Positions 1-61,344 of a DNA stretch of 64,000 nucleotides are shown here, piece by piece. Made by a program: the position numbers and the translations under genes. Source of the stretch: Corynebacterium pseudopelargi (GTDB lineage Bacteria > Actinomycetota > Actinomycetes > Mycobacteriales > Mycobacteriaceae); contig NZ_CP033898.1 in assembly GCF_003814005.1 (NCBI RefSeq), positions 620,001 to 684,000 on the forward strand. The letters run 5' to 3'. The notes under the pieces are model-generated. The model saw nothing but the letters and a program-made list of their open reading frames with translations, was not told the DNA's origin and ran no database searches. Every line of letters starts with the position of its first letter. The stretch's first letter is position 1.

Positions 1-1104
1 GGGTTTCCTGGTGAACTGCCCGTGATCACCACTGAGGCACCAAAGATCCAGCAATTCGACTTGCTGATCCTTCAAGGCAAAGCAAGCCCCAGCGGAGGGC
101 TCGGCAGAACCCTGTATGTGGCAGAGGATATCCACTACCTCGGTGCACAAGGTGGGCTTCAGCATCTTTCCTTGGTGATCAAGCTGCGCTTTCAGGCACT
201 TGTGCAGCAGCACTCCAATGGCGAGGCCATCGGCTTATTGCCGGCGATGATCCTTGGCGATGCCTCCTTGCAAGACACAGAGGCCAAACAACGCTACGCC
301 GCCACTGGGCTTGCGCACTTAAGTGCGGTCAGCGGAGGCAACGTGGCCATGCTCACCACCGCGGTACTAGCCATTGCCACGCTGCTCGGTGCCAGCAGAG
401 CGCTCGCATTGACAGCGGCACTGTTGAGCCTGGGCGCTTTTGTGTTCATCGTCGGCCCGGAGCCTTCGGTGCTGCGCGCTGGAGTGATGGGATCGCTCGC
501 CCTTGTGGCCATGATGGCGCAGACGCGCGCTCCGCCGATTCATGGGTTGAGCATCGCAATACTGGTGTTATTGCTGTATGAGCCCTCTTTGGCCACGTCC
601 TTTGGCATGAGCCTTTCCAGCTTTGCCACCGCGGGCATCATTGCCGCCTATCCGCTGATTTACCGCAGCATTGCAACGCCCTATTGGCCGGATGTGCTCA
701 GCCGCATGGTGGCGGTGGCGCTTGCTGCCGAGCTTGCCACCTTGCCGCTGGTGGTGGCGATGTCTCAGCGGGTGTCCTTGGTGGCGGTGCCGGCCAATGT
801 GCTGGTGGCGCCGGTGGTGCCGATCATTACTGTGGCTGGGTTATGTGCTGTGCTGTTAGAACCCACCGTGGTAGGTGCTGTGGTGATTCGCGCGATCACT
901 CCCTTGGCCAATTGGATTGCCAGGGTTGCTTACTATGGCTACAGCCTGCCCTTTGCGCGTGTGAACGTCCAAAGTGATCCGCTCACGCTGGCCTGGATGG
1001 TGCTGGCGGTGGCCTGGATTCTTTTTGCCCTAGCTTCTCGACGCCCAACCGTGATCATCCTCGTGTCCCTCAGCGTCGGATGCGTGCTCATGTTGCTGGC
1101 CTAG
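1..1104 (+). CDS. comEC: ComEC/Rec2-type DNA-uptake channel, 3' part
   Basis: The frame is open from the first base, so the gene begins upstream of the window and only about 367 C-terminal residues are present. The Competence-domain core is clear: a GLLPAMILGD segment followed by HLSAVSGGNVAML, then a run of hydrophobic helices to the stop at 1102-1104. ComEC proteins form the inner-membrane channel for single-stranded DNA in transformation. This copy ends after the membrane region with no metallo-beta-lactamase domain, as is common in actinobacterial forms. holA follows 19 bp downstream, the usual comEC-holA pairing. A TCAATGCGNNCG-type word (minus orientation) lies at 401-412. Confidence 0.9.
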   Translation, partial: GFPGELPVITTEAPKIQQFDLLILQGKASPSGGLGRTLYVAEDIHYLGAQGGLQHLSLVIKLRFQALVQQHSNGEAIGLLPAMILGDASLQDTEAKQRYAATGLAHLSAVSGGNVAMLTTAVLAIATLLGASRALALTAALLSLGAFVFIVGPEPSVLRAGVMGSLALVAMMAQTRAPPIHGLSIAILVLLLYEPSLATSFGMSLSSFATAGIIAAYPLIYRSIATPYWPDVLSRMVAVALAAELATLPLVVAMSQRVSLVAVPANVLVAPVVPIITVAGLCAVLLEPTVVGAVVIRAITPLANWIARVAYYGYSLPFARVNVQSDPLTLAWMVLAVAWILFALASRRPTVIILVSLSVGCVLMLLA

Positions 1105-1123
1105 GTGTGGCACCATTAGTGCC

Positions 1124-2071
1124 GTGAGCCAAGCAATTGCCCCCGTCCATCTCGTCCTCGGTGATGATGAATTCTTGCGCGAGCGCGCCCGCATCGCCAT
1201 TACGAGCAGCATTGCCGAACACTCCGAGGCAACTGTCAGCCGAGTACGCGCCGGCGAAATCACACAATCTGAGCTCTTAGAGCTGCTCAGCCCCTCACTT
1301 TTTGCTGAGCAACGCGTCATTGTGATCGAACACCTTGAAGATGCGGGCAAGGAACCAGCGCAGCTCGTGCTCGAAGCTGCAAGCAACCCCATCGACGGGA
1401 TGTACCTGATCATTTGCCACGCCGGTGGCGGACGCCAAAAGGCCATGGTGCCGAAGCTGAAAAAGCTTGCGCAAGTCCATGAGGTGGCCAAACTCAAACC
1501 CAACGAGCGCCCCGCATGGGTCACAGCGGAGTTTAGAAACCACGGCGTAAACCCCACCCCTGATGTAATCCATGCGCTTCTCGACGGCGTGGGGTCTGAT
1601 CTGCGCGAGCTTGCTTCAGCCGTGTCTCAACTCGTTTCAGATAACCCTGATGGTGTGGACGCATCGACAGTGCGAGCGTTTTATAACGGCATTGCCGAAG
1701 TTTCGGGCTTTGATATTGCAGACCTCGCTGTGAGTGGACAAACCGCCCGCGCCGTGGCCAGCACGCGCCGCGCATTGCAGCTCGGTGTATCGCCGGTGGC
1801 GCTGGCTACCGCCCTGAGCATGAAGGTGGGTGCGGTGGCGCGGCTCTATGGCAGTTGGAGAATTAATTCTCGTGAGTTAGCCGGAGAGTTAGGAATGGCG
1901 CCGTTTATTGTGGAAAAAACCTCGAAGGTGGCAAGACGCTGGTCAGGCGATGCGGTGAGCAAGGCCGTGATCCTCATGGCCGAACTTGATGCCACCGTCA
2001 AAGGCCAAGGCGGCGACCCTGAGTTTGCTATTGAGGATGCGGTGAGGCGCGTTTCCCAACTTGCTGGCTAA
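1124..2071 (+). CDS. holA: DNA polymerase III delta subunit
   Basis: A 315-residue protein with a GTG start. It begins with the HolA-type segment VHLVLGDDEFLRERA and has the AAA+-like architecture of the clamp-loader delta subunit, which opens the beta sliding clamp. Length fits the family. No convincing ribosome-binding site lies before the GTG, only 19 bp after comEC, so translation may depend on coupling or on a leaderless message. The downstream ankyrin gene starts a few bases after the stop. The identification is firm; the start codon is less so. Confidence 0.92.
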   Translation: MSQAIAPVHLVLGDDEFLRERARIAITSSIAEHSEATVSRVRAGEITQSELLELLSPSLFAEQRVIVIEHLEDAGKEPAQLVLEAASNPIDGMYLIICHAGGGRQKAMVPKLKKLAQVHEVAKLKPNERPAWVTAEFRNHGVNPTPDVIHALLDGVGSDLRELASAVSQLVSDNPDGVDASTVRAFYNGIAEVSGFDIADLAVSGQTARAVASTRRALQLGVSPVALATALSMKVGAVARLYGSWRINSRELAGELGMAPFIVEKTSKVARRWSGDAVSKAVILMAELDATVKGQGGDPEFAIEDAVRRVSQLAG

Positions 2072-2081
2072 ACTGTCACGC

Positions 2082-2483
2082 ATGCTGTCATCCGAACTAC
2101 CTGAAGACGTGCAAGCGTTAGCCAACAAGCTATTTCAGCTTGCGCGTTCTGGAGATCCGCGCAACCTGGCGGAATATCTCGACCACGGTGTTGATCCGAA
2201 CTTAAAAAACCATGAGGGCAATAGCCTGCTGATGTTGGCTGCCTATAGCGGCAACGAGGAAGCACTTGAGGTGCTGATTCAACGCGGCGCCGATGTTGAT
2301 GCTTTGAATGATCGAGGCCAGTCGCCACTGGCCGGGGCGATTTTTAAGAAGGAACAGGGGGTCGTCGAAAAGCTCATTCAAGCCGGCGCTGACCCTGCCC
2401 TGGGGCAGCCAAACGCCATTGAAACGGCGCGTATGTTTGGCCAAGACGAGCTTGTGCAACGGCTCGAAGGCCATGGAGCTTAA
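2082..2483 (+). CDS. small ankyrin-repeat protein
   Basis: 133 residues from ATG 2082; a TTG at 2061 inside the end of holA is a possible alternative start. The protein is about three ankyrin repeats, with signatures such as GNSLLMLAAYSGN, VLIQRGADVDALNDRGQSPL and LIQAGADPALG. It has no signal peptide or membrane helix, so it is probably cytoplasmic. Ankyrin repeats bind protein partners; the partner cannot be told from sequence. Its stop lies inside the start of the LysE-type gene (11-bp overlap), so the two are probably translated together. Confidence 0.8.
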   Translation: MLSSELPEDVQALANKLFQLARSGDPRNLAEYLDHGVDPNLKNHEGNSLLMLAAYSGNEEALEVLIQRGADVDALNDRGQSPLAGAIFKKEQGVVEKLIQAGADPALGQPNAIETARMFGQDELVQRLEGHGA

Positions 2484-3117
2484 CCAGATCGCCACGCTCG
2501 TCACCTTATATCTGGCTGGGATGATCAGCCCCGGACCCGATATTTTCCTGGTGATGCGCGTGGCCACCAAATCGCGCAAACATGGTCTGGCCACGGTCGC
2601 AGGCATTGTGACCGGGCTCGCGGTGTGGGTGACGCTCACCGTCACCGGCGCCTCAGCGCTGCTTACTGCCTACCCGTCGATTCTGAGCGCCATTCAACTG
2701 CTTGGCGGCGCCTGGATTGGGTATATGGGTGTGCAAATGCTTCGCGAGGCCAGAGAACAGTTCAAAGCGGACGCACGCATTGACTTAAAGCTCGAGGGCG
2801 TGCTGGGATCACCGTGGCGTTCCTACCGTCAGGGGCTGCTCACCAACTTGGCTAACCCTAAAGCGCTGCTGTACTTCGCTGCTGTGATCGCGCCGTTTTT
2901 GCCGCCAAATCCGAGCTTGGGGCTCAGCGTTGAGCTCATCTTCGTGCTGCTCTTTACCGCGCTTATCGGCTTCGGGCTGATCGCATTGGCGGTGGGATCG
3001 AAATTCCTGCGCAAACGGATGGTCAAGGCCGGGCCATATATTGATGGCGTTGCGGGTGCATTCTTTGTGTTCGCCGCGATTGCCTTGATGATTGCCGGCA
3101 TCCGCGGTTTCTTCTAA
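2473..3117 (+). CDS. LysE/RhtB-family amino-acid exporter
   Basis: 214 residues from ATG 2473, chosen because the family signature begins there; the longer open frame upstream overlaps the ankyrin gene in another frame. The N-terminal motif GMISPGPDIFLVMRVA is typical of the LysE/RhtB family, followed by hydrophobic helices and a family-typical LTNLANPKALLYF segment. These proteins export amino acids or homoserine lactones across the membrane, driven by proton motive force. The substrate cannot be assigned. It overlaps the ankyrin gene by 11 bp. Confidence 0.88.
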   Translation: MELNQIATLVTLYLAGMISPGPDIFLVMRVATKSRKHGLATVAGIVTGLAVWVTLTVTGASALLTAYPSILSAIQLLGGAWIGYMGVQMLREAREQFKADARIDLKLEGVLGSPWRSYRQGLLTNLANPKALLYFAAVIAPFLPPNPSLGLSVELIFVLLFTALIGFGLIALAVGSKFLRKRMVKAGPYIDGVAGAFFVFAAIALMIAGIRGFF

Positions 3118-3133
3118 CTACTCGCGATCGGCC

Positions 3134-3178
3134 CCTGCGGTAGTGCCCTGCGACGAAGCCTGCGGTAGTGCCCTGCGA
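3134..3178. repeat. two direct copies of a 20-bp unit
   Basis: The 20-mer CCTGCGGTAGTGCCCTGCGA occurs at 3134-3153 and again at 3159-3178, a period of 25 bp, in the short gap before the MOSC gene. It looks like a local duplication. No hairpin or T-run suggests a terminator. Confidence 0.8.
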
Positions 3179-3224
3179 TAAAGCGGGGCATAAAGCGGAG
3201 GATCTGCCCTTTGGAGTTATTAGT

Positions 3225-3881
3225 ATGAGGGGCATGAAGATCCTCAGCACCAATGTGGCCGTGCCCCAAGCTGATCCTGGTGGCGCGGATCGTGTGAGCG
3301 GCATTGATAAGAAGCCGCGCGAGTGCATCCGCGTGTTTACCCCCGGGCCTTCCTACGGGGATGGTTCGGGTGTGGAATCAGATGTGATTGGCGATACCAA
3401 GCATCACGGTGGCGCCGAAAAAGCGGTGTACGCCTTCGCCCGCGAGGAGCTGGATTATTGGCAGGAGCTGCTCGGCCGCGAATTGCCCCCTGGGGTGTTC
3501 GGCGAAAACCTCACCACCACGGGCGTGGATTGGTCTGCGCAACTGATCAACCAACGCATGCGCATCGGCACCGCGGTGCTTGAGGTATCCATTTCGCGCC
3601 AGCCTTGTCGAACCTTCGCCTCATGGCTTGAGCAGCGCGGATGGGTCAAACGCTTTGCAGATCATGGCGATTGCGGCGCCTACCTCCGCGTGATCGAGCC
3701 TGGGGATATTCGACCAGGTGATTCCATCGAGCTTTTCGACGCCCCAACGCACGCATTGACAATGCGGACGCTCTTCGCAGCGAATATGGGGGATCGCGAA
3801 GCCATGGCGGCTGTGCTCGAGGCCGATTGCGTGGCCCCGATGTACAGGGAGCGTTTTGAGAAGATGCTGCGCTCGCAATGA
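3225..3881 (+). CDS. MOSC-domain protein, YiiM-like
   Basis: 218 residues from ATG 3225, supported by GGAG about 8 nt upstream; ATG 3234 is a possible alternative. The fold signatures are DTKHHGGAEKAVYAF, LPPGVFGENLTTTG and SISRQPCRTF. The Cys in the last motif (about residue 128) is the residue MOSC proteins use to bind molybdenum cofactor or carry sulfur. YiiM-type proteins take part in reducing N-hydroxylated bases and related compounds. A back-to-back pair of TCAATGCG-type words lies at 3748-3770. The gene ends 30 bp before cas3. Confidence 0.88.
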   Translation: MRGMKILSTNVAVPQADPGGADRVSGIDKKPRECIRVFTPGPSYGDGSGVESDVIGDTKHHGGAEKAVYAFAREELDYWQELLGRELPPGVFGENLTTTGVDWSAQLINQRMRIGTAVLEVSISRQPCRTFASWLEQRGWVKRFADHGDCGAYLRVIEPGDIRPGDSIELFDAPTHALTMRTLFAANMGDREAMAAVLEADCVAPMYRERFEKMLRSQ

Positions 3882-3911
3882 CGATGGGGCCGTCCGGGGA
3901 AAGAGGCACAA

Positions 3912-5960
3912 GTGATTTTCCAGCGGGTTGATGCGTGGAAGCAGGAGCGCAGTGCTCAAGCGTGCGCACTGTGGGCCAAATCCGGACGCGAGGATGCATA
4001 CCTCACCCTGGTGCAGCACTTGGCCGATGCCGTGTCAGTTGCAGAATGGCTGTGGGAGCACTGGGTATCCGATGCGCTCAAAGCTCAACTGAGCCGGCTG
4101 TGGGGCTTAGAAGAAGATGAAGTAGCCAGGCTCTACTGTTTTCTGGCTGGAATCCACGATGTGGGCAAAGCTTCAGCGTCATTTCAACGCTTAGTCGAGC
4201 ACCGAAGCGGATCTGAATATTTGCTTGGCCCGCTTATCGATGCCGGCATTTCACTGGAATGGCCGCAGGGCGAAAGTGCAGAAACCAAGTTTCCGCACGG
4301 CACGGCCTCGGCCTTGCTATTGCGAAGGTGGCTAGAAAAAACGGAGCTGGATTTACTCAGAAGAAACGCCCTGGCCTCAATTGTCGATGCGCACCACGGA
4401 TTCACCAGCGATCCAATGATGGTGAAAAACCTCACCGATGCGACCGAGGGCAGGACATCGATCTTCGATGATATTGCCTACGAACTATTGGACTCGATGG
4501 CAGAACTGACCGAGGTTCACGAGGTCTTGGAGGAACTCGCTTGGAACGCTTCGCCTGATGCTGATGCTCTCCAAATCACCACTGGTTTGGTCATCATGGC
4601 TGACTGGATCGCTTCAAATGAGGATGCTTTTTGCTACCACCTGATACAGCCAGCCCCAGAGCGGCTGGCTAAGGCGATGGAATATATCGCTCTTCCAAAG
4701 CCTTGGGTACCGGTGGAAATTCCTGAAGGGGCACACGACTTATTCCGAAACACCTTCGGCTGGCCGGATAATTTTTCCGTGCGCCCCGTCCAACGCGCCG
4801 CGGCTGAGGTCGCCCGCGCAGCTACTGGCGCCACATTGATGATCATCGAGGCTCCAACGGGTGAGGGAAAGACAGAAGCTGGGTTAGCAGCAGCACACAT
4901 CCTTGGTGCCAAATCTGGTGCCCAGGGCGTATTTCTGGCTGCACCCACGATGGCAACGGCCAATGGTCTTTTCGAACGTGCATCACAGTGGGCTCGTCGC
5001 AGCTCCCGCGGCGGGGAAGTTGCTTCGATGTACTTGGCTCATTCGAAAAATAAGCTTTCGAAGCAGTATCAAGCGCTGCGGTATTCCTCAATTGCAGAAG
5101 ACGAACACGCATCGGGTTCCGATTCGCGCACAGCAAGGGGAGAGGTGGTGGCTACCCAATGGTTATCGAGCCGCAACCGAGGCATCTTGTCGGATTTCGT
5201 GGTCGGCACCGTAGACCAAGTATTGATGATGGCGCTTCAAACTCGCTTTTCCATGCTGCGCCATACCGGCTTGGCGGGCAAGATCATCATCATTGACGAG
5301 GTGCACGCGTATGACGCCTACATGTCTCAATACCTGTACCTCACCCTGGAATGGCTGGCGCGATACAGGGCGAGCGTGATCCTCATGTCTGCAACACTGC
5401 CGCCCCAGCAGAGAAAGCGCTTGGCTGCAGCCTATGCCTCGCAGTTGATCCATAAGCCGGAGCAAGCAGCAGAGGCCATCGATCTTCCTGGATACCCATT
5501 GATTAGCGTGGCAGACGCCAGCGGTATCCGGGCAATTGAAGTAGAGGCCGGAGCTGCGGATGTTGAGATTGCGACCGCTCGCATTGAAGATTCGATCGAT
5601 GCATTGTGCTCGACTGTGTGCTCGCAATTATCTGAGGGTGGCATCGCTTTGATCATTTGCAATACCATCGCGCGAGCTCAGGAAGCCTTTTCGGCTCTTG
5701 ATCGGCAGTATCCGGGAGAAGTGGAACTGCATCACTCGGCTTTTCTTGCCGTTCAACGAAGTGAAAAGGAAGATGCGCTGCGAGAGGCTTTGGGGCCAGC
5801 AGCGCGAAGGGGAAAGGGCCGCCCGTGGCGAAGCATTGTGGTGGCAACCCAAGTTGCTGAACAGAGTTTGGATATTGACGCCGACTTGTTGATCACCGAT
5901 ATTGCCCCTGTTATCGGGCGTGATTGGCATGTTGGCCGCGGCGCAGGGACGTCGGCGTAG
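3912..5960 (+). pseudogene. cas3: cas3 (type I-E), C-terminally truncated
   Basis: The open frame starts at GTG 3912 and encodes 682 residues; intact Cas3 proteins are usually near 900. The HD nuclease motifs are present (LVQHLAD near residue 36; GIHDVGKAS with H82-D83). So are Walker A (EAPTGEGKTEAG, ~residue 313), the DEVH box (~461), SATLP (~493) and the VATQVAEQSLDID helicase segment (~645). The Cas3 match ends at ITDIAPV. The QRxGRxxR motif VI that should follow is missing, and the last ~14 residues are cas5e DNA read in the wrong frame. Motif VI arginines contact ATP, so helicase function is very unlikely; the HD domain could still fold. Truncation was caused by a deletion joining cas3 to cas5e. 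Confidence 0.9.
5905..5925. other. deletion junction fusing cas3 to cas5e
   Basis: Up to about base 5912 the cas3 frame reads DIAPV, which in intact Cas3 leads into motif VI. From about 5914, one frame away, the reading is SGVIGMLAAA, the Cas5e segment that normally follows its N-terminal strand and FPTRSG-type motif. The seam is therefore within 5909-5916. By comparison with the standard I-E order, the missing DNA held the rest of cas3, cas8e (cse1), cse2, cas7e and the first ~33 codons of cas5e. My estimate is roughly 4 kb. Confidence 0.85.
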
Positions 5961-6522
5961 CGATCCCGTTGAAGATCTGGTTGATCTTGAGTTTGCTGTT
6001 CGTGTGGATCAGGCTGGATCTTTGTTGCGTGATTATCAGACTGCGCAGCCGTGGCAGAAAAATCCTCACGCAGATGCGAAGCTGGTAACCCGGTATTTTC
6101 TTGAAGATGCCGCCTTTGTGGCCGCCATCGGTTCGGATGACCGTGGACTTTTAGAAGAACTCCAACGCAACCTCCGGACCCCGGCGTATCCACTGTTTTT
6201 GGGTCGGCGTTCCTGCCCCGCACCTGCCAATCTCGACCTCGGAATTTTCGATGCTCCAGTGGTGGAGGCACTTCTTGGTTATGACACTTGGCATGCCACC
6301 ACGGTGCACAAAAAAGAACGCGCCCGAAACGTCGAGTTGCCGATTTATCGGGATGGAAAACCGGGCGAATACGGAAATCGGCGCCAAGACGTTCCCATTT
6401 CTTATGACCAAAAGCATAGGAAATATGGGTGGAGAACCGTCGTGTACGCAGGTTCTAAGACGATCGAAAACGACTTAGGCACCAACAACGATCCCTTCTT
6501 CGAGGCGGTGATTTCTTCATGA
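5914..6522 (+). pseudogene. cas5e: cas5e (casD), N-terminally truncated
   Basis: About 202 residues match Cas5e from its SGVIGMLAAA segment onward, with RRRSDPVEDL, LLRDYQT and the family hallmark YPLFLGRRSCPAP. The first ~33 residues of the ferredoxin-like fold are gone. The frame stays open back to a TTG at 5902 and contains ATG 5929, but neither has a good ribosome-binding site. Any product would come from reinitiation after the cas3 stop at 5958-5960. Cas5e holds the crRNA 5' handle in Cascade. With cas7e and cas8e absent here it has no local complex to join. cas6e starts within its stop codon (ATGA). Confidence 0.88.
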
Positions 6523-7187
6523 CCACATTTACAAAAGTGCTCATCAACCCTGAGCGCCGCAAAGGCCGCAAGTATCTGTTGAATCCAAATGCGCTCCATG
6601 CAGCGGTCCGTTACTGTTTTCCAGATGACGTGGACCAAAACGATCAGCGGATTCTTTGGCGCCTCGACCAGCGCGGACATGAGCATGCGTTATACATAGT
6701 CGGGCCAGAAAAGCCTACGGCCGCGCACATTGTCGAAGAAGCCGGCTGGGATACAAGGCCACAACAAACCGCTGACTATGGCCGCTTTTTATCCCAACTG
6801 AAAAAAGGCCAAAGGTGGAACTTTGAGCTGCTGGCCAACCCAACGAAAACCCTTAACCAGGGCCGAGACAAACGTGGCAAGGTGGTGGCTCACCTCAGTA
6901 ACGCAGAGCAAATGAAGTGGTTGCACAAGAAGGCCGAAACAATGGGCGTGAGTTTTGGTGATCTTGGCGATAGCACCGCCAGGATCATCGAGCGCAAAAC
7001 GCTAGATTTTCGCAAAACCCGTGCAGACGGCAGTGAAGGAGCCCGAGTCCACATCGTTACAGCCCGCTACGCAGGCACGCTGGAGGTTGTGGATGCGGAA
7101 AAACTCCAAGCGACGCTAGTAAAAGGGGTAGGGCGAGCAAAAGGCTACGGCTGCGGTTTGCTCACATTGGCGCAAATCAAGGGTTAG
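6519..7187 (+). CDS. cas6e: Cas6e crRNA endoribonuclease
   Basis: 222 residues; ATG overlaps the cas5e stop. It has the double RAMP fold of Cas6e/CasE, with the C-terminal glycine-rich loop GVGRAKGYGCGLLTLA. A His at residue 27 (NPNALHAAV) sits where the family's catalytic histidine lies. Cas6e cuts CRISPR repeat transcripts at the base of the repeat hairpin, leaving an 8-nt 5' handle. Length is normal and no frameshift is seen, so array transcripts could still be processed. cas1 follows 3 bp downstream. Confidence 0.93.
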   Translation: MTTFTKVLINPERRKGRKYLLNPNALHAAVRYCFPDDVDQNDQRILWRLDQRGHEHALYIVGPEKPTAAHIVEEAGWDTRPQQTADYGRFLSQLKKGQRWNFELLANPTKTLNQGRDKRGKVVAHLSNAEQMKWLHKKAETMGVSFGDLGDSTARIIERKTLDFRKTRADGSEGARVHIVTARYAGTLEVVDAEKLQATLVKGVGRAKGYGCGLLTLAQIKG

Positions 7188-7190
7188 AAC

Positions 7191-8135
7191 ATGGCTGAGA
7201 CTCCATCGGGTGCACCACTTGACCGGCTGTTATTGCCACGGCTAGAGGATCGCCTTTCGTTTCTTTATGTGGAGCGGGCGGTGGTGCATCGTGATGGCAA
7301 TGCCTTGACCATCCAAGACGTCCGTGGAATCGCACACGTTCCTGCCACACAGTTGGCTGTGCTGCTGCTTGGACCTGGAACCAAAGTCACCTATGCGGCT
7401 ATGGCATTGCTTGGCGACGCAGGCGCATCGGTAGTCTGGGTGGGCGAAAAATGTGTACGATACTACGCTCATGGTCGCCCACCAGCCAAAACGTCCCGCT
7501 TTGCCGAGGCGCATGCCAAAATCTGGTCCAATCAACGTTCCCGCCTAGCCTGTGCCCGGAAAATGTACGCGATGCGCTTTCCTGGTGAAGATGTATCCGG
7601 GCTCTCCATGTCACAACTGCGTGGCAGGGAGGGTGCCAGGATGAAGCGAGTGTATAGCCAAGAAGCGCAACGAACTGGTGTTGCGTGGAGTAGGCGCAGT
7701 TATGATCCGAATGATTTCGAGTCTGGCGATCCAATTAACCGGGCACTCACCGAAGGATCGGCCGCTCTCTACGGCATCGCCCATGCCGTCATCGTTGGGC
7801 TGGGCTTCATTCCATCACTTGGCATCATCCACACCGGTACCGACAGGGCATTCGTCTACGACGTAGCGGATCTGTATAAAGCTGAGATCTCAATCCCCGC
7901 GGCTTTTGAAGCCGTCGCAGCACTGCCAAGCGGAGATGACCTCAATGTTCGAAAACGGATCCGTGATCGAGTAGTGAGCACAAAACTCATGCAAAGGATG
8001 GTCCAGGATCTGCAGAATCTCATGGAGATTCCTGAGGAAGACACCTACACGGATGTTGACCTTCTCTTATGGAGTGAGCTGGAAGTCATCGCCGCCGGAA
8101 TGAACTGGGCGGATGGGGACAGTGTTGCCCAATGA
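7191..8135 (+). CDS. cas1: Cas1, type I-E integrase
   Basis: 314 residues, full length for Cas1e. Metal-binding residues can be placed: E147 in RGREGARMK, H214 in GIIHTGT, and D224/D227 in FVYDVADLYK. With Cas2 it forms the integrase that inserts new spacers at the leader end of the array. The gene lies 3 bp after cas6e and overlaps cas2 by ATGA. Nothing suggests decay. Confidence 0.95.
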   Translation: MAETPSGAPLDRLLLPRLEDRLSFLYVERAVVHRDGNALTIQDVRGIAHVPATQLAVLLLGPGTKVTYAAMALLGDAGASVVWVGEKCVRYYAHGRPPAKTSRFAEAHAKIWSNQRSRLACARKMYAMRFPGEDVSGLSMSQLRGREGARMKRVYSQEAQRTGVAWSRRSYDPNDFESGDPINRALTEGSAALYGIAHAVIVGLGFIPSLGIIHTGTDRAFVYDVADLYKAEISIPAAFEAVAALPSGDDLNVRKRIRDRVVSTKLMQRMVQDLQNLMEIPEEDTYTDVDLLLWSELEVIAAGMNWADGDSVAQ

Positions 8136-11894: not shown

Positions 11895-11911
11895 CGAAAA
11901 GCTAAGAAGGC

Positions 11912-51014: not shown

Positions 51015-51040
51015 CCAAGAAAAGGAAAGGGGCAGCGCAG

Positions 51041-52078: not shown

Positions 52079-52148
52079 TATTATCGTTTCGCTTCCAATT
52101 CGCTGATGTACGCGACAATTCACAAGGTGTTAGGACCGCTAGAGACTT

Positions 52149-53288: not shown

Positions 53289-54016
53289 TGTCCCTTCAGG
53301 TTTTTATCGCCGATTCCCTCGAGGGCGACACCCTCAGCCTGGATGGCCCCGAGGGCAAACACGCAGTGACGGTCAAGCGCACCGCCGTGGGCGAGCACAT
53401 CAAGCTTGTCGACGCCAACGGTGCCTTCGCCATCTGTGAAGTCATCGAGCTTCCTGCCAAAGATCGCCTCATCGCGCGTGTGCTTGAGCGCGGCACAGAA
53501 CCTTTGCCCAAGCCCTCGGTGACGGTTTTCCAAGCAGTGCCAAAATCAGAACGTTCTGAACTCACCGTCGATTTGCTCACCCAAGCAGGCGTGGATGTGG
53601 TGGTGCCCTGGCAAGCCTCGCGCTGCGTGGCCAAGTGGCAGGGCGCAAAGCGCGACAAGGCTGTGGCCAAGTGGGAGCAGGCCGCGCGTGCTGCCGCCAA
53701 ACAATCGCGTAGGGCCAGGCTGCCGCGCATTGAACAACCTCACAGCACCCAAGAGGTCGCCGCACGCTTAGATGCCTTTGATGCGGTGTATGTGCTGCAT
53801 GAATCGGCCACGGTTGGCATCAAGGATTGTGAGCTTGGTGCCGCAGCGTCGCTGGCGTTAATTATTGGCCCTGAAGGTGGCATTAGCCCCGAAGAACTCG
53901 AGGCGTTTTCAGCCCGTGGAGCGCTCGCATTGAAGCTGGGGCCGGAGGTGTTGCGCACGGCTACTGCGGGCATGGTGGCTCTTGCTGCAATCGGCATGAA
54001 GACTTCGCGCTGGTAA
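53288..54016 (+). CDS. rsmE: 16S rRNA (uracil1498-N3)-methyltransferase
   Basis: 242 residues. SPOUT-fold signatures: LIIGPEGGISPEELEAF and LGPEVLRTATAGMVALAAI; an N-terminal PUA-like domain precedes. It methylates U1498 in 16S rRNA. The gene is coupled to dnaJ. A CGCTCGCATTGA word lies in its C-terminal coding part (53922-53933), read as ALAL. Confidence 0.95.
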   Translation: MSLQVFIADSLEGDTLSLDGPEGKHAVTVKRTAVGEHIKLVDANGAFAICEVIELPAKDRLIARVLERGTEPLPKPSVTVFQAVPKSERSELTVDLLTQAGVDVVVPWQASRCVAKWQGAKRDKAVAKWEQAARAAAKQSRRARLPRIEQPHSTQEVAARLDAFDAVYVLHESATVGIKDCELGAAASLALIIGPEGGISPEELEAFSARGALALKLGPEVLRTATAGMVALAAIGMKTSRW

Positions 54017-54074
54017 GGTGTGGCGCGAAAGCGATCCTGCTTCTGTTCCCAAACTTCTGTGAAGGTAGATCAAT

Positions 54075-55040
54075 TTGGCAAAGCATGCCTCCACCACCCG
54101 CACTGTCGGGGTGGACGCCCAGCACCTGCAAACGATCATGGGGATTCATGATGAAAACCTCAAGGTCCTAGAAAACCAACTCGATGTCAGTATCTTTGCT
54201 CGCGGCGATGCGGTGTCTATTGCCGGCGCTGAACACGAGGTGGCTCGTGCGGTGCGGGTCTTAAAAGAACTGCAGTCGGTCGCGCGTCGCGGCCATGTGA
54301 TTACTCCAGATACCGTCAAACACACCGTGACCATGGTCAGCGTGGAGGCCCCCGAGTCGGTGGCCACCATGGTCGGTAGCGATATTTTGGCCCGCCGCGG
54401 CAAGGTGATTCGGCCAAAAACTTATGGTCAGAAGCGCTATGTGGATGCTATTGACGAAAACACCATCGTGTTTGGTTTAGGCCCTGCAGGTTCGGGTAAG
54501 ACGTATTTGGCTATGGCCAAGGCGGTGCAGGCGTTGCACGCGAAGGAAGTAAGCCGCATCATCTTGACTCGTCCTGCTGTGGAGGCGGGAGAAAAGCTGG
54601 GCTTTTTGCCGGGCACGTTGAATGAGAAGATCGATCCCTATTTGCGCCCGCTGCATGATGCGCTGCGCGATATGGTCGATCCAGAGATCATTCCTAAGTT
54701 GATGGAGTCTGGGATTGTCGAGGTCGCCCCGCTTGCCTATATGCGCGGGCGCACCTTAAACGATGCCTTTGTCATTTTGGATGAGGCTCAAAACACCACA
54801 CCTGCGCAGATGAAGATGTTTTTAACTCGTTTGGGCTTTGGTTCCAAGATGGTGGTGACAGGGGATGTGACCCAGGTGGATTTGCCGGGTGGTCAGCGTT
54901 CTGGCCTGCGGGTAGTCAAAGACATTTTGCAAGGTGTTGAAGGGATCCACTTTGCCGAGTTGGGCGCCGAAGATGTGGTGCGCCACCAGCTCGTCGGCCG
55001 CATCGTGGAGGCCTATGAGGAATTCGAGGAGCAGCAGTGA
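54075..55040 (+). CDS. PhoH-like ATPase
   Basis: 321 residues from TTG 54075, with GAAGGT upstream. A KH-like N-terminal part precedes the ATPase: [20 protein letters not shown] (Walker A), [18 protein letters not shown] and [21 protein letters not shown] (Walker B). It is thought to act in RNA metabolism, often beside ybeY. ybeY overlaps its stop by 4 bp (GTGA). Confidence 0.95.
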
Positions 55041-55618
55041 GCATCGAGATCATTAATGAATCAGCCTTCGATGGCGTCAACGAGGAGATGCTTGTCGACG
55101 TCGCGAGCTTCGTCCTAGCTGCCATGGATATCCATAGCGACGCCGAGGCCACCATCTCTTTGGTGGATACCCCGACGATGAGCGATCTGCACCTGCGTTG
55201 GATGGACCTTGAAGGCCCTACTGATGTGATGAGCTTTCCTATGGATGAGCTCAGCCCCGGCCAGCCGCGCCCCGATGCGCAGCCCTTTGGCCCGGAGATG
55301 CTTGGCGATATCATCATTTGCCCAGAATTCGCCGCAAAGCAGGCCATTAAGGCAGGCCATGATCTAGGCCATGAGCTTGCGTTGCTTACCACCCATGGCT
55401 GTTTGCACCTGCTGGGCTATGACCATATTGAGCCTGAAGAGGAACAAAAGATGTTCGCTCTTCAGAATGCTTTGCTCAAGGATTGGTACGCCCAGCTTGA
55501 GGTTGAATACCAACCAAAGCCTTCGAATGCCGGTGCTTTTCCCACCCCGCAGCAGCGCGCGGCTTTGGATAAGGAAGTTCCAGGCGGCGGCATCCCTGCA
55601 ATTGGTGAGCCTTCATGA
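55037..55618 (+). CDS. ybeY: endoribonuclease YbeY
   Basis: 193 residues from GTG 55037. The metal motif is [19 protein letters not shown] (HxxxHxxxxxH). Family segment [25 protein letters not shown] precedes. YbeY matures 16S rRNA and controls ribosome quality. The C-terminal ~35 residues form a Pro/Gly-rich tail longer than in enterobacterial YbeY. It overlaps phoH and the CNNM/CBS gene. Confidence 0.95.
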
Positions 55619-56937
55619 GCATGGCACTTGCCGGGCTGATTACCGTGGCAGCACTGCTGCTGTCCGGTTTGATCGGCACCGTTGAGGCGGCAGTAAGCTC
55701 CATTTCCCGCGCGCGGGTGGAGCACATGGTCAAAGAAGAAGAGCAGCGCAATGCCCGCAGCCTTCTGCGCGTGCTGGATCATCGCGCCGAGTACATCAAC
55801 TTACTGGTGCTGCTGAAAACGCTGCTTGATGCTACCGCTGCGGTGTTTGCCAGCCTGGTCAGCTTGGAGCTGATCCACCATGTTGGTTGGGCGCTTACCG
55901 CCGCCATCATTGGTACCTCGCTGGTGACCTTCGCGGTAGTCGGTGTGTTTTCGCGCACTGTGGGTAAAAAGAACCCCTATAGCGTGTCTTTGGGCAGCGC
56001 GCTGCTGCTGAATATCGTGGCCAAAATCTTAGGCCCGATCTCCAGCTTGCTTATCCGCGTGGGCAACCTATTTGCCCCTGGTCTTGGTTTTAGAGACGGC
56101 CCTTATTCCACCGAGGTGGAATTGCGCGAGATGGTCGATATTGCCCAAGAACGTGGGGTAGTAGAGGTAGAAGAGCGCCGCATGATCCAGTCGGTGTTTG
56201 ATCTTGCCTCCACCACCGCGCGTTCGGTGATGGTGCCTCGCCCGGAGATGGTGTGGATCGAGTCAGGAAAAACGGCCGGCCAAGCCACCAGCTTGTGTGT
56301 GCGTTCTGGGTTTTCTCGCATCCCCGTCATTGGCGAGACGGTCGACGACATCATCGGCGTGGTCTACCTCAAAGACTTAGTGCAGCAGACCTACTACAGC
56401 ACCGATGGTGGCCGTAGCGTGGCCGTCGATGATGTGATGCGTGAGGCCACCTTCGTTCCCGATTCCAAGAACCTCGATGCCCTGTTGCACGAGATGCAGC
56501 GCGATCGCAACCACATTGCCATGCTTGTCGACGAATACGGCGGCATCGCAGGCCTGATCTCCATTGAAGACATCCTCGAAGAGATCGTGGGCGAGATCGC
56601 AGATGAATACGACGCCCGCGAAGTAGCCCCCATCGAGGCCCTTGAGCAACCCTCCACCTACCGCGTGGTGGCGCGTTTGAGCCTGGATGATCTTGGCGAG
56701 CGCGTCGAAGAAGACCTTGGTATTACCCTCGATTTTTCTGAAGAGGTAGAAAACCAGGTTGATACCGTCGGCGGGCTGCTCGCCTTTGAGATGGGCCGTG
56801 TGCCCCTGCCCGGATCCACGGTACGAGTAGGCAGGCTGGAGTTGCGTGCCGAAGGAGGCCGCGACCGTCGTGGCCGGGTGCGCGTTGGCTCGGTGATCGT
56901 TCGGGTGCACGAGCACAAGGAAGACCCGGAGCAATAA
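55615..56937 (+). CDS. CNNM/CBS-domain transporter (CorC/HlyC family)
   Basis: 440 residues from ATG 55615. Four N-terminal helices form a DUF21/CNNM domain ([20 protein letters not shown]). Two CBS domains follow ([41 protein letters not shown]) and a CorC_HlyC C-terminal domain. Relatives export or regulate magnesium and cobalt. It lies in the phoH-ybeY-corC block by ATGA overlap. Confidence 0.93.
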
Positions 56938-56997
56938 ACTTCAGGCGCTGGGTGTGCCAAGTTGTTTGTGTGCAGCGCAGTCGCGCATGATGGAGTT

Positions 56998-57849
56998 ATG
57001 AGTATCCTTTCCATCCAGTCGCATGTGAGCTTCGGCCACGTTGGTAATTCGGCGGCAGTGTTTCCTTTGCAGCGCATCGGCCTTGAAGTATGGCCTGTGT
57101 ACACCGTCAATTTTTCCAACCACACCGGTTATGGGGACTGGGGTGGCGACCTCATCCCTGCCGATCAGATTCGCAGCGTGATCGAGGGCATTGGGCGTCG
57201 AGGTGGATTCGAGCAGATTGATGCGATCGTTTCTGGCTACCAGGGTGGCAAGGAAATTGCGCAGGTCATTATCGACGCAGTGGCAGAGATTAAGAAGGTC
57301 AACCCCAAGGCCGTCTATGCCTGCGATCCCGTGATGGGTTCGAAGACCACTGGCTGCTTTGTCGACGACGCCATCCCGCCGCTGTTGCGCGATAAGGTCG
57401 TGCCCGTTGCCGATATCATCACCCCGAACCAATTCGAGTTGGGCTACCTCACCGGCGTTGAGGCAAGCGATATTGCAAGCACCCTTGAGGCCATTGACGC
57501 CGCACGCGCCATGGGCCCTGAGGTGGTGCTGGTGACGTCGGTGCGTCGGCCCGAGGCTCCGGAGAACACCATCGAGATGATCGCTGCTGATGGCGAAGCC
57601 GCCTACATGGTGCAGACCCCTTGGGTGGGCACCAAGCTCACTGGTACTGGTGATGTGACCACCGCGCTGTTTAGTGGGCACCTGGTGCAAACTGGCAGCA
57701 TCAAGGAGGCTTTGGAGCGCACCACCGCCAGCGTATTCAACTTGATTGATTACACCTTTACACAGCAGGAGAGCGAGCTTGCCCTTATTGCTGGCCAAGA
57801 GGCCTTCGTTGCACCTGCTCAAACCTTTAGCGCCGAGCGAATCCGCTAA
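56998..57849 (+). CDS. pdxY: pyridoxal kinase
   Basis: 283 residues from ATG 56998; GGAG is only 2-3 nt away, so ATG at 56998 may be leaderless or the start may differ. PfkB/PdxK features: SILSIQSHVSFGHVGNSAAV, VDAIVSGYQGG-like, VYACDPVMG, ADIITPNQFELGYLTG and the C-terminal TGTGDVTTALF phosphoryl-transfer motif. It phosphorylates pyridoxal to PLP. The gene is inserted between the CNNM/CBS gene and era. PdxK is an alternative name. Confidence 0.88.
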   Translation: MSILSIQSHVSFGHVGNSAAVFPLQRIGLEVWPVYTVNFSNHTGYGDWGGDLIPADQIRSVIEGIGRRGGFEQIDAIVSGYQGGKEIAQVIIDAVAEIKKVNPKAVYACDPVMGSKTTGCFVDDAIPPLLRDKVVPVADIITPNQFELGYLTGVEASDIASTLEAIDAARAMGPEVVLVTSVRRPEAPENTIEMIAADGEAAYMVQTPWVGTKLTGTGDVTTALFSGHLVQTGSIKEALERTTASVFNLIDYTFTQQESELALIAGQEAFVAPAQTFSAERIR

Positions 57850-57875
57850 GCGCCCCAACTACAACGAGGAGACGC

Positions 57876-58796
57876 GTGAGCTTCCAAGACACACCTGAGG
57901 GCTTTAAGTCTGGGTTTATCAGCTTTGTGGGCAGGCCAAATACCGGCAAATCCACCCTGACCAATGCGCTGGTTGGCCAAAAAATTGCCATTACTGCCGA
58001 TCAGCCAGAAACCACCCGCCACCCAATTCGCGGTATTGTGCACCGCCCTGATGCGCAGGTGATCGTGGTGGATACCCCTGGTCTGCACCGCCCTCGCACC
58101 TTGCTTGGCGAGCGTCTCAACGACGTAGTCAAAGACACCTACCAGGACATGGACCTGATTGGTCTGTGCATCCCTGCAAATGAGAAGATCGGCCCTGGCG
58201 ATCGCTGGATCCTTGATGCCGTGCGCAAACTTGCGCCGAACACTCCGGTGCTGGGGATCGTGACCAAGGCAGATGCAGCCTCCCGTGACCAGGTGGGCGC
58301 GCAATTATTGGCCGTGCACGAGATGCTCGGTGGCGAATCGGAGGTCGTGCCAGTATCGGCGGTGACCGGCGAGCAGCGCGATGTGCTTCTAGATGTGATT
58401 GTGGATCTGTTGCCTGAAGGGCCAAAGTTTTATCCCGATGATCACGTCACTGATGATGACACCAACACCCGAATCGCAGAGTTGATCCGCGAGGCCGCCC
58501 TTCAGGGTTTGCGCGATGAGCTGCCGCACTCGGTGGCAGTGGAGGTCGATGAGATCATTCCGAATGAAGAGCGCGAAGGCGTGCTCGATGTGCACGCGTT
58601 GATCTATGTGGAACGAGAAGGCCAAAAGCGCATCATCGCTGGGCGTGACGGTAAGCGCATGGGGCGCATTGTGCATGCGGCCCGCCCGCAGATTATTGAG
58701 CTGCTTGGCCAAAACGTCTACTTGGATCTGCGCATGAAGGTGCTGAAGAATTGGCAGCAGGATCCTAAGTTGCTGGGGCGCTTGGGATTTGCCTAG
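57876..58796 (+). CDS. era: GTPase Era
   Basis: 306 residues from GTG 57876, with GAGGAG upstream. G1 GRPNTGKST, G3 DTPGLHRPRTLLGERLND, G4 TKAD, and a C-terminal KH domain (YVEREGQKRIIAGRDGKRM). It assembles the 30S subunit and binds 16S rRNA. recO overlaps its stop by 8 bp. Confidence 0.96.
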   Translation: MSFQDTPEGFKSGFISFVGRPNTGKSTLTNALVGQKIAITADQPETTRHPIRGIVHRPDAQVIVVDTPGLHRPRTLLGERLNDVVKDTYQDMDLIGLCIPANEKIGPGDRWILDAVRKLAPNTPVLGIVTKADAASRDQVGAQLLAVHEMLGGESEVVPVSAVTGEQRDVLLDVIVDLLPEGPKFYPDDHVTDDDTNTRIAELIREAALQGLRDELPHSVAVEVDEIIPNEEREGVLDVHALIYVEREGQKRIIAGRDGKRMGRIVHAARPQIIELLGQNVYLDLRMKVLKNWQQDPKLLGRLGFA

Positions 58797-59514
58797 ACCT
58801 GCACGCAGGCTGCGCGCCCTGGTGGTGCGCAGCTATGACTTTGGCGAGGCTGATCGCATCGTCGTATTGCTCAGCCGTGAAGAAGGGCTTGTCCGTGCGG
58901 TGGCCAAGGGTGTGAGGCGTGCAAAAAGCCGCTTTGGTTCCAGGCTGCAGCCCTTTGTGGAATTAGACGTCCAGCTCTACCCGGGCCGCAACCTTAGCCT
59001 GATCACCCAGGCCGATACCGTGTCCTATTTTGCTTCAGGACTTATCGACGACCCACGTCGCTTCACCGCCGCCTGCACAGTATTGGAAGCAGCCGAGTCC
59101 CTATCCCAGGCCCACGAAGACCCTGCGTTATACGATCTCAGCGTCAAAGCGATCGTACAGATCGCCCAGGATCCCGATCCGATTGTGGCCCTGGATGGTT
59201 ATTTCTTGCAGGCCATGGAGCTTGCCGGTTGGGCGCCAAGCCTCTTTGATTGCGCCCAGTGTTCAGCGCGTGGGCCGCATCATGCCTTTCATCCTGCAGC
59301 CGGCGGGGCGGTGTGCGTGCACTGCAGGCCGCCTGGATCGAGCGAGGTGGATCCAGAAACGCTGCATTTGCTGTGGCTTTTAGCCCATGGGCATTCACCA
59401 AGCCAGGTGCTTACGCCTCAACGTGGTGCGCAGGGGCACCAATTGCTCAAAAGCTATCTGCAATACCACCTTGAACGCAGGTTAAAGAGCCTGCAGGTGT
59501 TGGATGAAGTGTGA
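58789..59514 (+). CDS. recO: DNA repair protein RecO
   Basis: 241 residues from TTG 58789. N-terminal OB-fold: [21 protein letters not shown] and [17 protein letters not shown]; a zinc motif of CAQC and CVHC follows. It loads RecA on SSB-coated DNA in RecFOR repair. It overlaps era by 8 bp and uppS by 11 bp. Confidence 0.95.
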
Positions 59515-60271
59515 AAATGGCACAATACTCCACGTGAGTGAAGCGATGAACGTGCCAGATATTCCTGCTGAGTTTTTACCCAAGCACATTGCCTTAGTCA
59601 TGGACGGCAATGGGCGATGGGCGCAGCAGCGCGGCTTAAAGCGCACCGAGGGGCACAAGCGCGGCGAGAAAGTGCTGCTGTCCATGGTGGATGCCTGCCT
59701 GGCAATGGGGGTGCCGTATCTTTCGGCCTATGCCTTTTCTACTGAAAACTGGCGTCGTTCCACCGATGAGGTGCGCTTTTTGATGGGCTTTAATCGCGAT
59801 GTGCTGCGCCGCCAACGCGAGTATCTTCACCAGCACAATGTGCGCATCCGCTGGGTGGGGCGCAGGCCACGGCTGTGGCGCAGCGTGATTCGTGAGCTCG
59901 AGGCCGCGGAGGAATTGACCAAGGACAACACCGCCATGACCTTGGCCATGTGCGTGAATTATGGTGGCCGCGCGGAAATCGTCGATGCCGCCCGTGCGAT
60001 CGCCGCCGAGGCGGCAGCGGGGAAGTTGCGCCCCGAGGCGATTACCGAGTCGAGCTTCTCGCAGTTTTTAGATGAGCCCGACATGCCCGATGTGGATTTG
60101 TTCTTGCGCCCTTCGGGAGAACAGCGCACCTCAAATTTCTTGCTCTGGCAATCGGCCTATGCCGAGATGGTGTATCAGGACAAGCTCTTTCCCGACTACA
60201 CCCCGGATGACCTTTTTGCCGCGGTGGAAGAATACGCTCGCAGGGATAGGCGATTCGGGGGCACAAAATGA
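59504..60271 (+). CDS. uppS: isoprenyl (decaprenyl-type) diphosphate synthase
   Basis: Up to 255 residues from ATG 59504; GTG 59534 and ATG 59546 are also plausible and the homology starts just after the latter. Cis-prenyltransferase motifs: [42 protein letters not shown] and [19 protein letters not shown]. It makes the polyprenyl carrier for cell-wall synthesis, using IPP from the Idi pathway. The end overlaps mbfA by ATGA. Confidence 0.94.
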
Positions 60272-61344
60272 GCACCTCACCCACCCCAGCCCAGATTCGA
60301 CGTTGGCGGCAGTATCTTGCCAATGAACGCGCAGAAGCAGCGGTGTATCGAGAGCTGGCCAAGCGCAAGCAGGGTGAGGAGCGAGAGATTCTGCTCGCTG
60401 TGGCCGAGGCTGAGTCGCGCCATGAAGAACACTGGCGCAACCTTTTAGGCGCAGATGTGGGCTTGCCCAAGCAGCCGGATTTCTCTACCCGGATGTTGGC
60501 GTTTTTGGCTAAGAATTTTGGCTCGGTATTCACGCTCGCATTGATGCAGACAGCAGAACAGCGCAGCCCTTATGCCCAAGATGCTGATGCTACGGATCAG
60601 ATGAAAGCCGATGAGGCGATCCACGCTGAGGTGGTGCGAGGTTTAGCCGCGCGCGGGCGTGAACAGATGAGTGGCAGCTTCCGCGCCGCGGTGTTTGGCG
60701 CCAATGATGGCCTGGTGTCTAATTTGGCCCTGGTGCTCGGTGTGATGGCCTCCGGGGTCAGCCCTGGCGTGGTGTTGATTACCGGCGTCTCTGGCCTTTT
60801 AGCCGGTGCCTTGTCGATGGGTGCGGGCGAATACATCTCGGTAAAAAGCCAAGATGAGCTGCTTGAGGCCTCTACGCCGCACCCTGAGGCGGATCAGGCC
60901 ATCCCGAAACTTGATGTGAATGCCAATGAGCTCGCCTTGGTCTACCGTGCTCGGGGAATGAGCGAGCAGGAAGCCGAGCACAAAGCCCAGCAGGTGTTTA
61001 CCCGCATGCAGCACCCCAGCGCGAAGTCTTTCGTCTCTGGTATCGAGGCCACAGATCGCACCACCGTGGGCGGGGCATGGCAGGCTGCTATTTCTAGTTT
61101 CTGCTTCTTTGCCTCTGGTGCCTTGATCCCGATCATCCCCTTCTTCTTCAATATCTCAACGCTTGTGGCATCGTTGATTGCCTTGGTGGCGGTGGGGCTG
61201 ACGTTGATGATCACCGGTGCGATCACGGGAATTCTCAGCGGAAAGCCACCCCTGAAGCGCGCCTTGCGCCAGCTCGCCATTGGGCTGGGGGCTGCGGGTG
61301 TGACCTTCGGACTCGGTCACCTCTTCGGGGTGGCTGTGGCCTAA
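60268..61344 (+). CDS. membrane-bound ferritin, ferritin-like plus VIT1 domains (MbfA type)
   Basis: 358 residues. The first ~130 form a rubrerythrin/ferritin-like four-helix domain with [25 protein letters not shown] and [11 protein letters not shown] as candidate iron ligands. The rest is a CCC1/VIT1 transporter domain, starting [21 protein letters not shown] and ending in three helices. MbfA proteins export iron or manganese and protect against oxidative stress. It is convergent with zur. Confidence 0.9.

What the first reader, a model, noticed from the sequence alone, without database searches (positions are those of the whole stretch)
401..60544. Scattered 12-base word TCAATGCGNNCG on both strands
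By eye I count 34 copies in 64 kb, where about 0.1 is expected for ten fixed bases. Plus: 13197, 15341, 15996, 16329, 16818, 17651, 18616, 19039, 21200, 21263, 23744, 24608, 25019, 25396, 27770, 31252, 31791, 32249, 35359, 41684, 42653, 46875. Minus: 401, 2772, 3748, 15818, 18124, 24170, 24902, 33940, 43986, 49831, 53922, 60533. NN is mostly AG, AC, CG, TC, GC or TG. Copies lie in coding regions in several frames (read ALAL, ARID, HALT, VNAG, LNAR) and in terminator or intergenic DNA, so selection acts on DNA. It could be an uptake signal, a Chi-like or chromosome-organising site, or a protein target.
Basis: partly seen in the sequence, partly recalled or inferred. Interest (0 to 1): 0.75.

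Follow-up and report, generated by a model that had tools for sequence, protein, structure and literature searches.

The report
Nuclease genes with private word fields
In some corynebacteria, genes for little-understood DNA-cutting proteins each sit at the centre of dozens of conserved copies of a DNA word found almost only around that gene, which suggests that each protein has a marked territory on the chromosome and gives a way to learn what these proteins do.

Summary
The word is real: 35 exact copies in the window, 0.25 expected. It is not genome-wide: 41 of the genome's 56 copies lie in one 131-kb stretch. The site is really a 23-bp dyad, about CGNNCGCATTGNCAATGCGNNCG, kept at the same places in two related species, also at silent codon positions.

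The field is centred on a DUF222-HNH endonuclease-like gene (window 19816-20922). Two other HNH-type genes of the same chromosome each sit at the centre of a field of a different word, in all three species. A second Corynebacterium clade has a fourth word around its own HNH gene at the same locus. Best reading: each word is the target of the HNH protein encoded at its centre. What the field does is open; I favour a local sink that holds the protein near its gene.

No binding was shown. One of the four fields (717 kb) is only weakly above controls. Of 24 related genes seen, 13 have no detectable field: 12 distant relatives in other species and one fragment. Two Tsukamurella genes have none either.

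The parts
19816..20922 (+). DUF222-HNH (13E12-type, name recalled) endonuclease-like gene, 368 aa, at the centre of the word field; proposed reader of the word
   Evidence: Pfam DUF222 and HNH above cut-off; orthologues 93% and 69% near the field centre in G007 and G174; HNH and zinc residues conserved
401..60544 (.). Part of the word field in the window (whole field about 554-692 kb of the contig, interrupted by a 43-kb insertion without sites)
401..412 (-). word copy
2772..2783 (-). word copy
3748..3759 (-). word copy (near-perfect dyad)
13197..13208 (+). word copy
15341..15352 (+). word copy
15818..15829 (-). word copy
15995..16006 (+). word copy
16329..16340 (+). word copy
16818..16829 (+). 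word copy
17651..17662 (+). word copy (strong dyad)
18124..18135 (-). word copy
18616..18627 (+). word copy
19039..19050 (+). word copy, intergenic
21200..21211 (+). word copy
21263..21274 (+). word copy
23744..23755 (+). word copy
24170..24181 (-). word copy
24608..24619 (+). word copy
24902..24913 (-). word copy
25019..25030 (+). word copy
25396..25407 (+). word copy
27770..27781 (+). word copy, intergenic
31252..31263 (+). word copy
31791..31802 (+). word copy
32249..32260 (+). word copy
33940..33951 (-). word copy, intergenic
35359..35370 (+). word copy
41684..41695 (+). word copy
42653..42664 (+). word copy
43986..43997 (-). word copy
46875..46886 (+). word copy, intergenic
49831..49842 (-). 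word copy
53922..53933 (-). word copy
60533..60544 (-). word copy
1327..59155 (.). 20 further dyad sites that vary the word (12-bp core starts): 1327-, 1656-, 3870-, 6722-, 13862-, 17219+, 17346-, 19628-, 21559-, 23052+, 23128-, 24781+, 29379-, 32788-, 33111+, 34682-, 37259-, 37280-, 49387-, 59144+
   Evidence: weight-matrix score above 17

Best explanation
Each word field is the target array of the HNH protein encoded at its centre (inferred; I put this step at about 0.7). In this window the DUF222-HNH gene at 19816-20922 reads the 23-bp dyad built on TCAATGCG. Two other HNH-type genes of the same chromosome (545972-547153 and 717403-718581), of a different HNH family, read two other words. 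A fourth, in another Corynebacterium clade, reads TTCCCCACGG. Shown: the fields, their centring on the genes, one word per gene, and conservation of the words. Not shown: any binding or cutting. My reading of the purpose (about 0.35, given the first step) is a local sink: newly made protein meets its words near its own gene and is held there, so that a potentially harmful nuclease is kept on a leash. That would explain why sites are kept only within some tens of kb of the gene and why their orientation and distance do not matter.
For: Local field, 23-bp dyad; a matrix trained on another species finds 62 sites in 75.9 kb against 5 in 219 kb and 1 in 80 kb of control. Sites kept in place: 55 of 61 alignable in G007 and 34 of 49 in G174; column-permuted matrices keep 3 of 13 and 3 of 12. 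Field median to gene: +2.7, +0.1, -1.5 kb for this word in G000, G007, G174 (arithmetic); -0.7, -2.3, +2.1 kb (546-kb gene) and +0.2, -0.3, -0.2 kb (717-kb gene). Each word clusters at its own gene only, in all three species, e.g. G000 38/2/1, 20/0/0, 24/1/2. Independent case: G068 and G043, another word, another HNH family than the window gene, same locus. Third-codon identity inside against outside the word: 0.941 v 0.717 and 0.766 v 0.561; 0.966 v 0.734 and 0.887 v 0.570, 0.905 v 0.746 and 0.835 v 0.632; 0.926 v 0.697. For the sink: an actinobacterial HNH nuclease kills cells when over-expressed (PMC9416677, abstract and passages); the passages seen do not say whether it is DUF222-type.
Against: Of 24 related genes in the fetched DNA, 13 have no detectable field (12 in other species, at most 29% identical to a central protein where tblastn found them, and one fragment in G000); 2 Tsukamurella genes have none. 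9 of 47 field-less genomes carry such a gene within about 45 kb of this locus. The 717-kb word is the weakest: z 9.3-10.4 against 72 control windows with 95th percentile 10.6, and its silent-position excess in G174 lies within that of ordinary control words. Control words also show a silent excess, up to +0.12 (G007) and +0.23 (G174), so that test alone is not decisive. In G068 the broader site set has its median 6.8 kb from the gene. The opp operon next door is about as near the centre as the HNH gene at this locus. The 546- and 717-kb proteins score just under the Pfam HNH cut-off and do not match DUF222. No structure was predicted; the tool never ran.
Confidence: 0.42

Rival explanations
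1. Selfish spread: the HNH protein acts on its words to promote transfer or recombination of the surrounding DNA, so words that travel with the gene are favoured; recombination tract length sets the width of the field.
For: HNH enzymes include homing endonucleases (recalled); the median distance of sites from the gene is of one scale in all cases, about 6-12 kb; different HNH genes occupy this locus in different clades.
Against: All three genes and fields are retained at the same places in three species. Little sign of mobile carriers: the 717-kb protein has no match on 72,556 plasmid records, the window protein three partial ones at about 35% identity, the 546-kb protein none in 50,697 phage records. 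A cut at a word would tend to lose it on repair, yet the words are conserved.
Confidence: 0.2
2. Chromosome-domain organiser: the word is a MatP/matS-like site and the protein folds or tethers the domain around its gene.
For: Dense, conserved dyad sites in one domain; three fields spaced 78-94 kb in G000 and 46-71 kb in the other two species.
Against: The field is not at a fixed place relative to origin or terminus: about 0.64 Mb from dnaA in G000 and about 0.55 Mb from it on the other arm in G174; in G043 the locus lies 1.13 Mb into a 2.34-Mb contig with ParB near its end.
Confidence: 0.15
3. Another, unlinked protein reads the word and the HNH genes at the centres are bystanders.
For: No binding shown; related genes without a field; the opp operon is also at the centre at this locus.
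Against: Three different words in one genome each centre on a different HNH gene, in three species, and a fourth word does so in another clade; the 546- and 717-kb genes are not next to this opp operon.
Confidence: 0.15
4. The small Cro/C1 helix-turn-helix protein with its membrane partner (window 16310-17007) reads the word and tethers the region.
For: DNA-binding gene next to a membrane gene inside the dense part, conserved in the three species.
Against: The membrane partner has matches in 94 of 242 genomes, while 80 kb around the pair in 5 other species shows no comparable local word; upstream of the HTH gene lies a conserved TGTAAA..TTTACA repeat, unlike the word.
Confidence: 0.03
5. Codon usage or chance produces the word.
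For: 59 of 65 sites are in coding DNA, close to the coding fraction of 0.87; ordinary words also show some silent-position excess.
Against: 35 against 0.25 expected; about 20- to 36-fold local excess in one genome with one codon usage; conservation in place far above permuted matrices.
Confidence: 0.01

Closest known systems
DUF222/13E12 HNH family and related HNH proteins of actinobacteria
   Same: The window gene matches Pfam DUF222 and HNH above cut-off; the other three central proteins match Pfam HNH at 20.3-23.9 bits (cut-off 21.4) and share the HNH and zinc residues
   Different: Only the window gene passes for DUF222; the searches made found no report of a target word or of a field of sites around such genes (listings only)
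Free-standing homing endonucleases (HNH, e.g. of phages; recalled)
   Same: HNH motif in a gene of its own; a target region near the gene
   Different: A homing endonuclease's own genome normally lacks the uncut site (recalled); here the presumed target is present in about 25-75 conserved copies around the gene
MatP/matS and other site-specific domain organisers
   Same: Short sites repeated through one chromosomal domain, kept by selection
   Different: About one site per kb and centred on a nuclease-like gene, against 23 sites in 800 kb for matS (start of abstract of PMC3330122); different words around different genes of one chromosome
DNA uptake sequences (Neisseria, Haemophilus; recalled)
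   Same: Short words kept by selection, differing by clade
   Different: Local, not genome-wide

Membership tests
DUF222/13E12 HNH family | Pfam DUF222 match of the window gene | tested here: met
   28.1 bits, cut-off 24.4
DUF222/13E12 HNH family | Pfam DUF222 match of the other three central proteins | tested here: not met
   G068 14.1 bits, below 24.4; none for the 546- and 717-kb proteins. They are 33-34% identical to the G068 protein, 18-21% to the window protein
HNH endonucleases | Pfam HNH match | tested here: inconclusive
   window 23.5 and G068 23.9 bits above the cut-off of 21.4; 546-kb 20.9 and 717-kb 20.3 just below
HNH endonucleases | HNH and zinc-binding residues intact | tested here: met
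   C268, C273, H284, N298, C303, H306 invariant in 11 of 11 aligned proteins; their assignment is by recalled HNH layout
Free-standing homing endonuclease | Own genome lacks or masks the target | tested here: not met
   if the word is the target, it is present in dozens of copies
Free-standing homing endonuclease | Site-specific cutting | not testable with these tools
   needs purified protein
MatP/matS-type organiser | Dyad sites confined to one domain | tested here: met
MatP/matS-type organiser | Domain is the terminus | tested here: not met
   dnaA at 487 of a 2.345-Mb contig, field at 0.55-0.69 Mb
ParB/parS | A ParB-family reader beyond the usual one | tested here: not met
   one ParB_N match in each of the three genomes
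DNA uptake sequence | Genome-wide over-representation | tested here: not met
   15 copies outside the field in 2.2 Mb, within the background of other genomes
Chi or KOPS | Genome-wide distribution | tested here: not met
   local; 31 forward and 25 reverse copies in the genome
Restriction-modification | Target avoided or methylated genome-wide | tested here: inconclusive
   no avoidance outside the field; methylation not testable here

The most novel reading that the evidence does not exclude
Actinobacterial HNH proteins of the DUF222/13E12 type and a related family, common and without known function, are sequence-specific proteins that each own a chromosomal territory: the host genome gains and keeps dozens of copies of a private word around each gene, so that protein, word and neighbourhood co-evolve, and the word differs when the HNH gene at a locus differs.
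Probability: 0.5. Interest if true: 0.92.

Novelty: categorically new. Interest (0 to 1): 0.86.

Why it matters
It ties common proteins of unknown role to concrete DNA targets that can be tested at the bench at once, gene by gene. It also shows that a bacterial chromosome can carry gene-centred fields of conserved words inside ordinary housekeeping genes, with different words for neighbouring genes. That would be a new kind of cis-acting chromosome feature and a hidden constraint on coding sequence.

Tried and rejected
A high-order Markov k-mer ranking missed the word because its own sub-words are enriched; a lower-order model found it. A HTH-membrane pair looked like the binder at first and was rejected. 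An extra ParB was looked for and not found. Search for local words at the same locus in 8 further species with 80 kb and 40 with 20 kb found a clear one only in G206, which has the G068 word. A near-against-far word test around related genes of other species is not usable: 33 arbitrary centres score a median of 7.6 and up to 20.2, and TGCGCCAC near the G173 gene (10.3) shows no longer motif. A word CGTCGANAAGCT was first taken for a polar KOPS-like sequence from the order of a listing; counting by strand showed no polarity. A family-level search outside the genus found no genome but the three above 4 copies in 401. TGGCCAAG in G238 looks like in-frame codon usage.
Full report
What was claimed and what is there. 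The word TCAATGCGNNCG occurs 35 times in the window; dinucleotide-preserving shuffles give 0.25 on average and never more than 2 in 100. The 34 listed copies are real (one off by a base) and one was missed at 5576. The window is 620001-684000 of a 2.345-Mb contig whose dnaA lies at its start. Of 56 copies in the genome, 41 lie between 554.6 and 685.3 kb and 15 in the other 2.2 Mb. So this is a local field, not a genome-wide word.

The site. Aligning the copies shows further conserved bases on both sides. Iterated weight matrices give a 23-bp dyad, roughly CGNNCGCATTGNCAATGCGNNCG, one half strong and the other weaker. The strong half matches 8.6 of 9 dyad bases on average, the weak half 5.2 of 9 against 2.4 by chance. 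A matrix trained on another species (G174) finds 62 sites in the 75.9-kb core of the field in this genome, 5 in the 19.8 kb on its left, none in a 42.9-kb insertion, 5 in 219 kb elsewhere and 1 in 80 kb of distant control.

Who has it. In the 242 Corynebacterium genomes searched, a dyad pattern gives 25 copies here, 27 in G007 and 14 in G174; the other 239 have at most 5. In 401 genomes of the family only these three exceed 4 copies of a stricter pattern. No tool named the window's own species.

Conservation. The field is syntenic in the three species. Of 66 sites here above score 17, 61 align to G007 and 55 of those keep a site; 49 align to G174 and 34 keep one, at a flanking identity of 0.88 and 0.77. 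Matrices with permuted columns keep 3 of 13 and 3 of 12. Third codon positions inside the site core are 0.941 identical against 0.717 elsewhere (G007) and 0.766 against 0.561 (G174), and the difference holds base by base. Ordinary control words taken from elsewhere in G174 also differ from their surroundings, by -0.05 to +0.12 in G007 and by +0.02 to +0.23 in G174 (a CRISPR-repeat word left out). So the G007 excess of +0.22 is beyond the controls and the G174 excess of +0.21 is near their top, which is held by TCGACGCC, a word that overlaps the genus-wide word described under things noticed. 59 of 65 sites lie in coding DNA, 39 antisense and 20 sense to the gene; one antisense frame would read a stop codon, which may explain the frame bias (inference). 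A 4-kb segment that G000 and G007 have and G174 lacks at this place carries sites, and the 43-kb insertion found only in G000 has none. I infer that sites are gained over time and kept by selection on DNA.

The centre. The dense part holds ordinary genes (lepA, an opp transporter, other transporters, a HTH-membrane pair, and in G000 and G174 a type I-E CRISPR locus). The density of sites peaks 0-5.5 kb from the HTH gene in all three species. Measured from the DUF222-HNH gene at window 19816-20922, the median site lies at +2.7, +0.1 and -1.5 kb in G000, G007 and G174 (arithmetic; a notebook entry of mine said about 0 for the last).

A second clade, a second word. In G068 and G043 the same locus carries a bell-shaped field of a different word, TTCCCCACGG with further G on its right: TCCCCACG occurs 70 and 69 times in 80 kb, on both strands, at irregular spacing; 16 other stretches of 64-100 kb have 1-5 copies. 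A 20-kb stretch in G206 has it too. Silent positions in the word are 0.926 identical against 0.697 elsewhere between G068 and G043. Near the centre lies an HNH gene (G068 793549-794766; Pfam HNH above cut-off, DUF222 below it). The median word lies 3.3 kb (G068) and 4.7 kb (G043) from it, with bootstrap intervals that include the gene; with a broader site set the G068 offset is 6.8 kb.

Third and fourth words in the window's own genome. The G068 protein has 33-34% identical relatives in G000 at 546 and 717 kb. Around 545972-547153 the word is TCCTAACT..AAAGTTAGGAGGG (AGTTAGGA 26 times in 40 kb, 0.2 expected). Around 717403-718581 it is TTTCYTGAAGGGG. Both recur around the orthologues in G007 and G174. 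Medians lie at -0.7, -2.3 and +2.1 kb and at +0.2, -0.3 and -0.2 kb from the gene. Each word clusters at its own gene: sites within 15 kb of the own gene against the other two are 38/2/1, 20/0/0 and 24/1/2 in G000, and alike in the other two species. Silent identity is 0.966 v 0.734 and 0.887 v 0.570 for the first, 0.905 v 0.746 and 0.835 v 0.632 for the second. In a sliding scan of the fetched DNA of the three species the window word and the 546-kb word stand out (up to z 16.9 and 20.9), while the 717-kb word (10.4-12.2) is hardly above other words (up to 11.5). It is local, though: 30 of its 57 G000 sites fall in the homologous 70 of 364 kb, whereas seven control words have 20-36% of theirs in 13-28% of the DNA.

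The proteins. The window gene matches Pfam DUF222 and HNH. The 546- and 717-kb proteins match only HNH, at 20.9 and 20.3 bits against a cut-off of 21.4. All 11 aligned central proteins share the HNH and zinc residues. So the fields go with two HNH families, 15-21% identical to each other.

Limits. A profile built from the central proteins and relatives finds 24 such genes in the fetched DNA. The 9 in the three species and the 2 in G068 and G043 have a field. Twelve in other species and one fragment have none that I could detect; seven of the twelve were found by tblastn at 22-29% identity, five by the profile only. Two Tsukamurella genes have none. In 72 control windows the top 8-mer score has a median of 7.9 and a 95th percentile of 10.6; the highest are G206 (same field, 23.1) and 13.1. 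The word scores at the genes are 12.9-17.9 (window gene), 10.8-20.9 (546 kb), 9.3-10.4 (717 kb) and 29-30 (G068, G043). At this locus 53 genomes were examined and 6 have a field. So the link between gene and word rests on four loci in two clades, one of them weak.

How it may work. That the central protein reads the word is inferred from centring, from one word per gene, and from the different word where the HNH gene at one locus differs. Three facts constrain the purpose: sites are kept near the gene; the word is not avoided elsewhere; site strength shows no significant dependence on distance. I favour a local sink that holds a potentially harmful nuclease near its gene. Over-expression of an actinobacterial HNH nuclease kills cells and the pure enzyme cuts chromosomal DNA (PMC9416677, abstract and 12 passages seen). 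Selfish linked transfer and domain organisation remain open.

Literature. Searches for DUF222 or 13E12 with HNH, and for nuclease genes with clustered sites, gave no report of such fields (listings only). The library lacks most subscription papers.

Noticed in passing
window, e.g. 2363, 11892, 15893, 17487, 49029; all over G000: A second dispersed word, CGTCGANAAGCT, is genome-wide: 337 copies in G000 against 25 for the reversed control. Its 11-base form CGTCGANAAGC is about equally frequent on both strands, present in the stretches of 17 of 18 Corynebacterium genomes counted and absent from that of G015; 33 of 38 copies in 616.7-692.4 kb are within coding DNA. It could be an uptake signal or a binding site.
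   Followed up: partly
window 3912-11180: Type I-E CRISPR-cas locus with a long array inside the field; in G174 the cas proteins are 96-99% identical in a background of about 76% DNA identity, and G007 lacks the locus here: recent exchange or loss.
   Followed up: partly
window 16310-17007: Small Cro/C1 helix-turn-helix protein overlapping a membrane-protein gene; the pair was present in all 12 loci looked at, and the membrane protein has matches in 94 of 242 genomes; conserved TGTAAA..TTTACA upstream of the HTH gene in the three species. Function unknown.
   Followed up: partly
G000 contig 573.8-616.6 kb (outside the window): 43-kb insertion absent at this place from G007 and G174 and without a single site of the field; it looks like a recent mobile element.
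   Followed up: no
G000 739.7-755.4 kb against G174: A 15.6-kb stretch is 92% identical between G000 and G174 where the neighbourhood is about 77%: probably recent exchange between species.
   Followed up: no
G206 C1:209579-210773: The HNH relative beside the G206 field appears in two pieces, one with in-frame stops, which suggests a broken gene while its word field persists.
   Followed up: no
L169, L170 (Tsukamurella tyrosinosolvens records labelled plasmids): Records labelled plasmid carry housekeeping genes such as glnA, lipA and ctaD, so they look like chromosomal pieces; a word CACCGTCG is enriched in the centre and flanks of both stretches.
   Followed up: no
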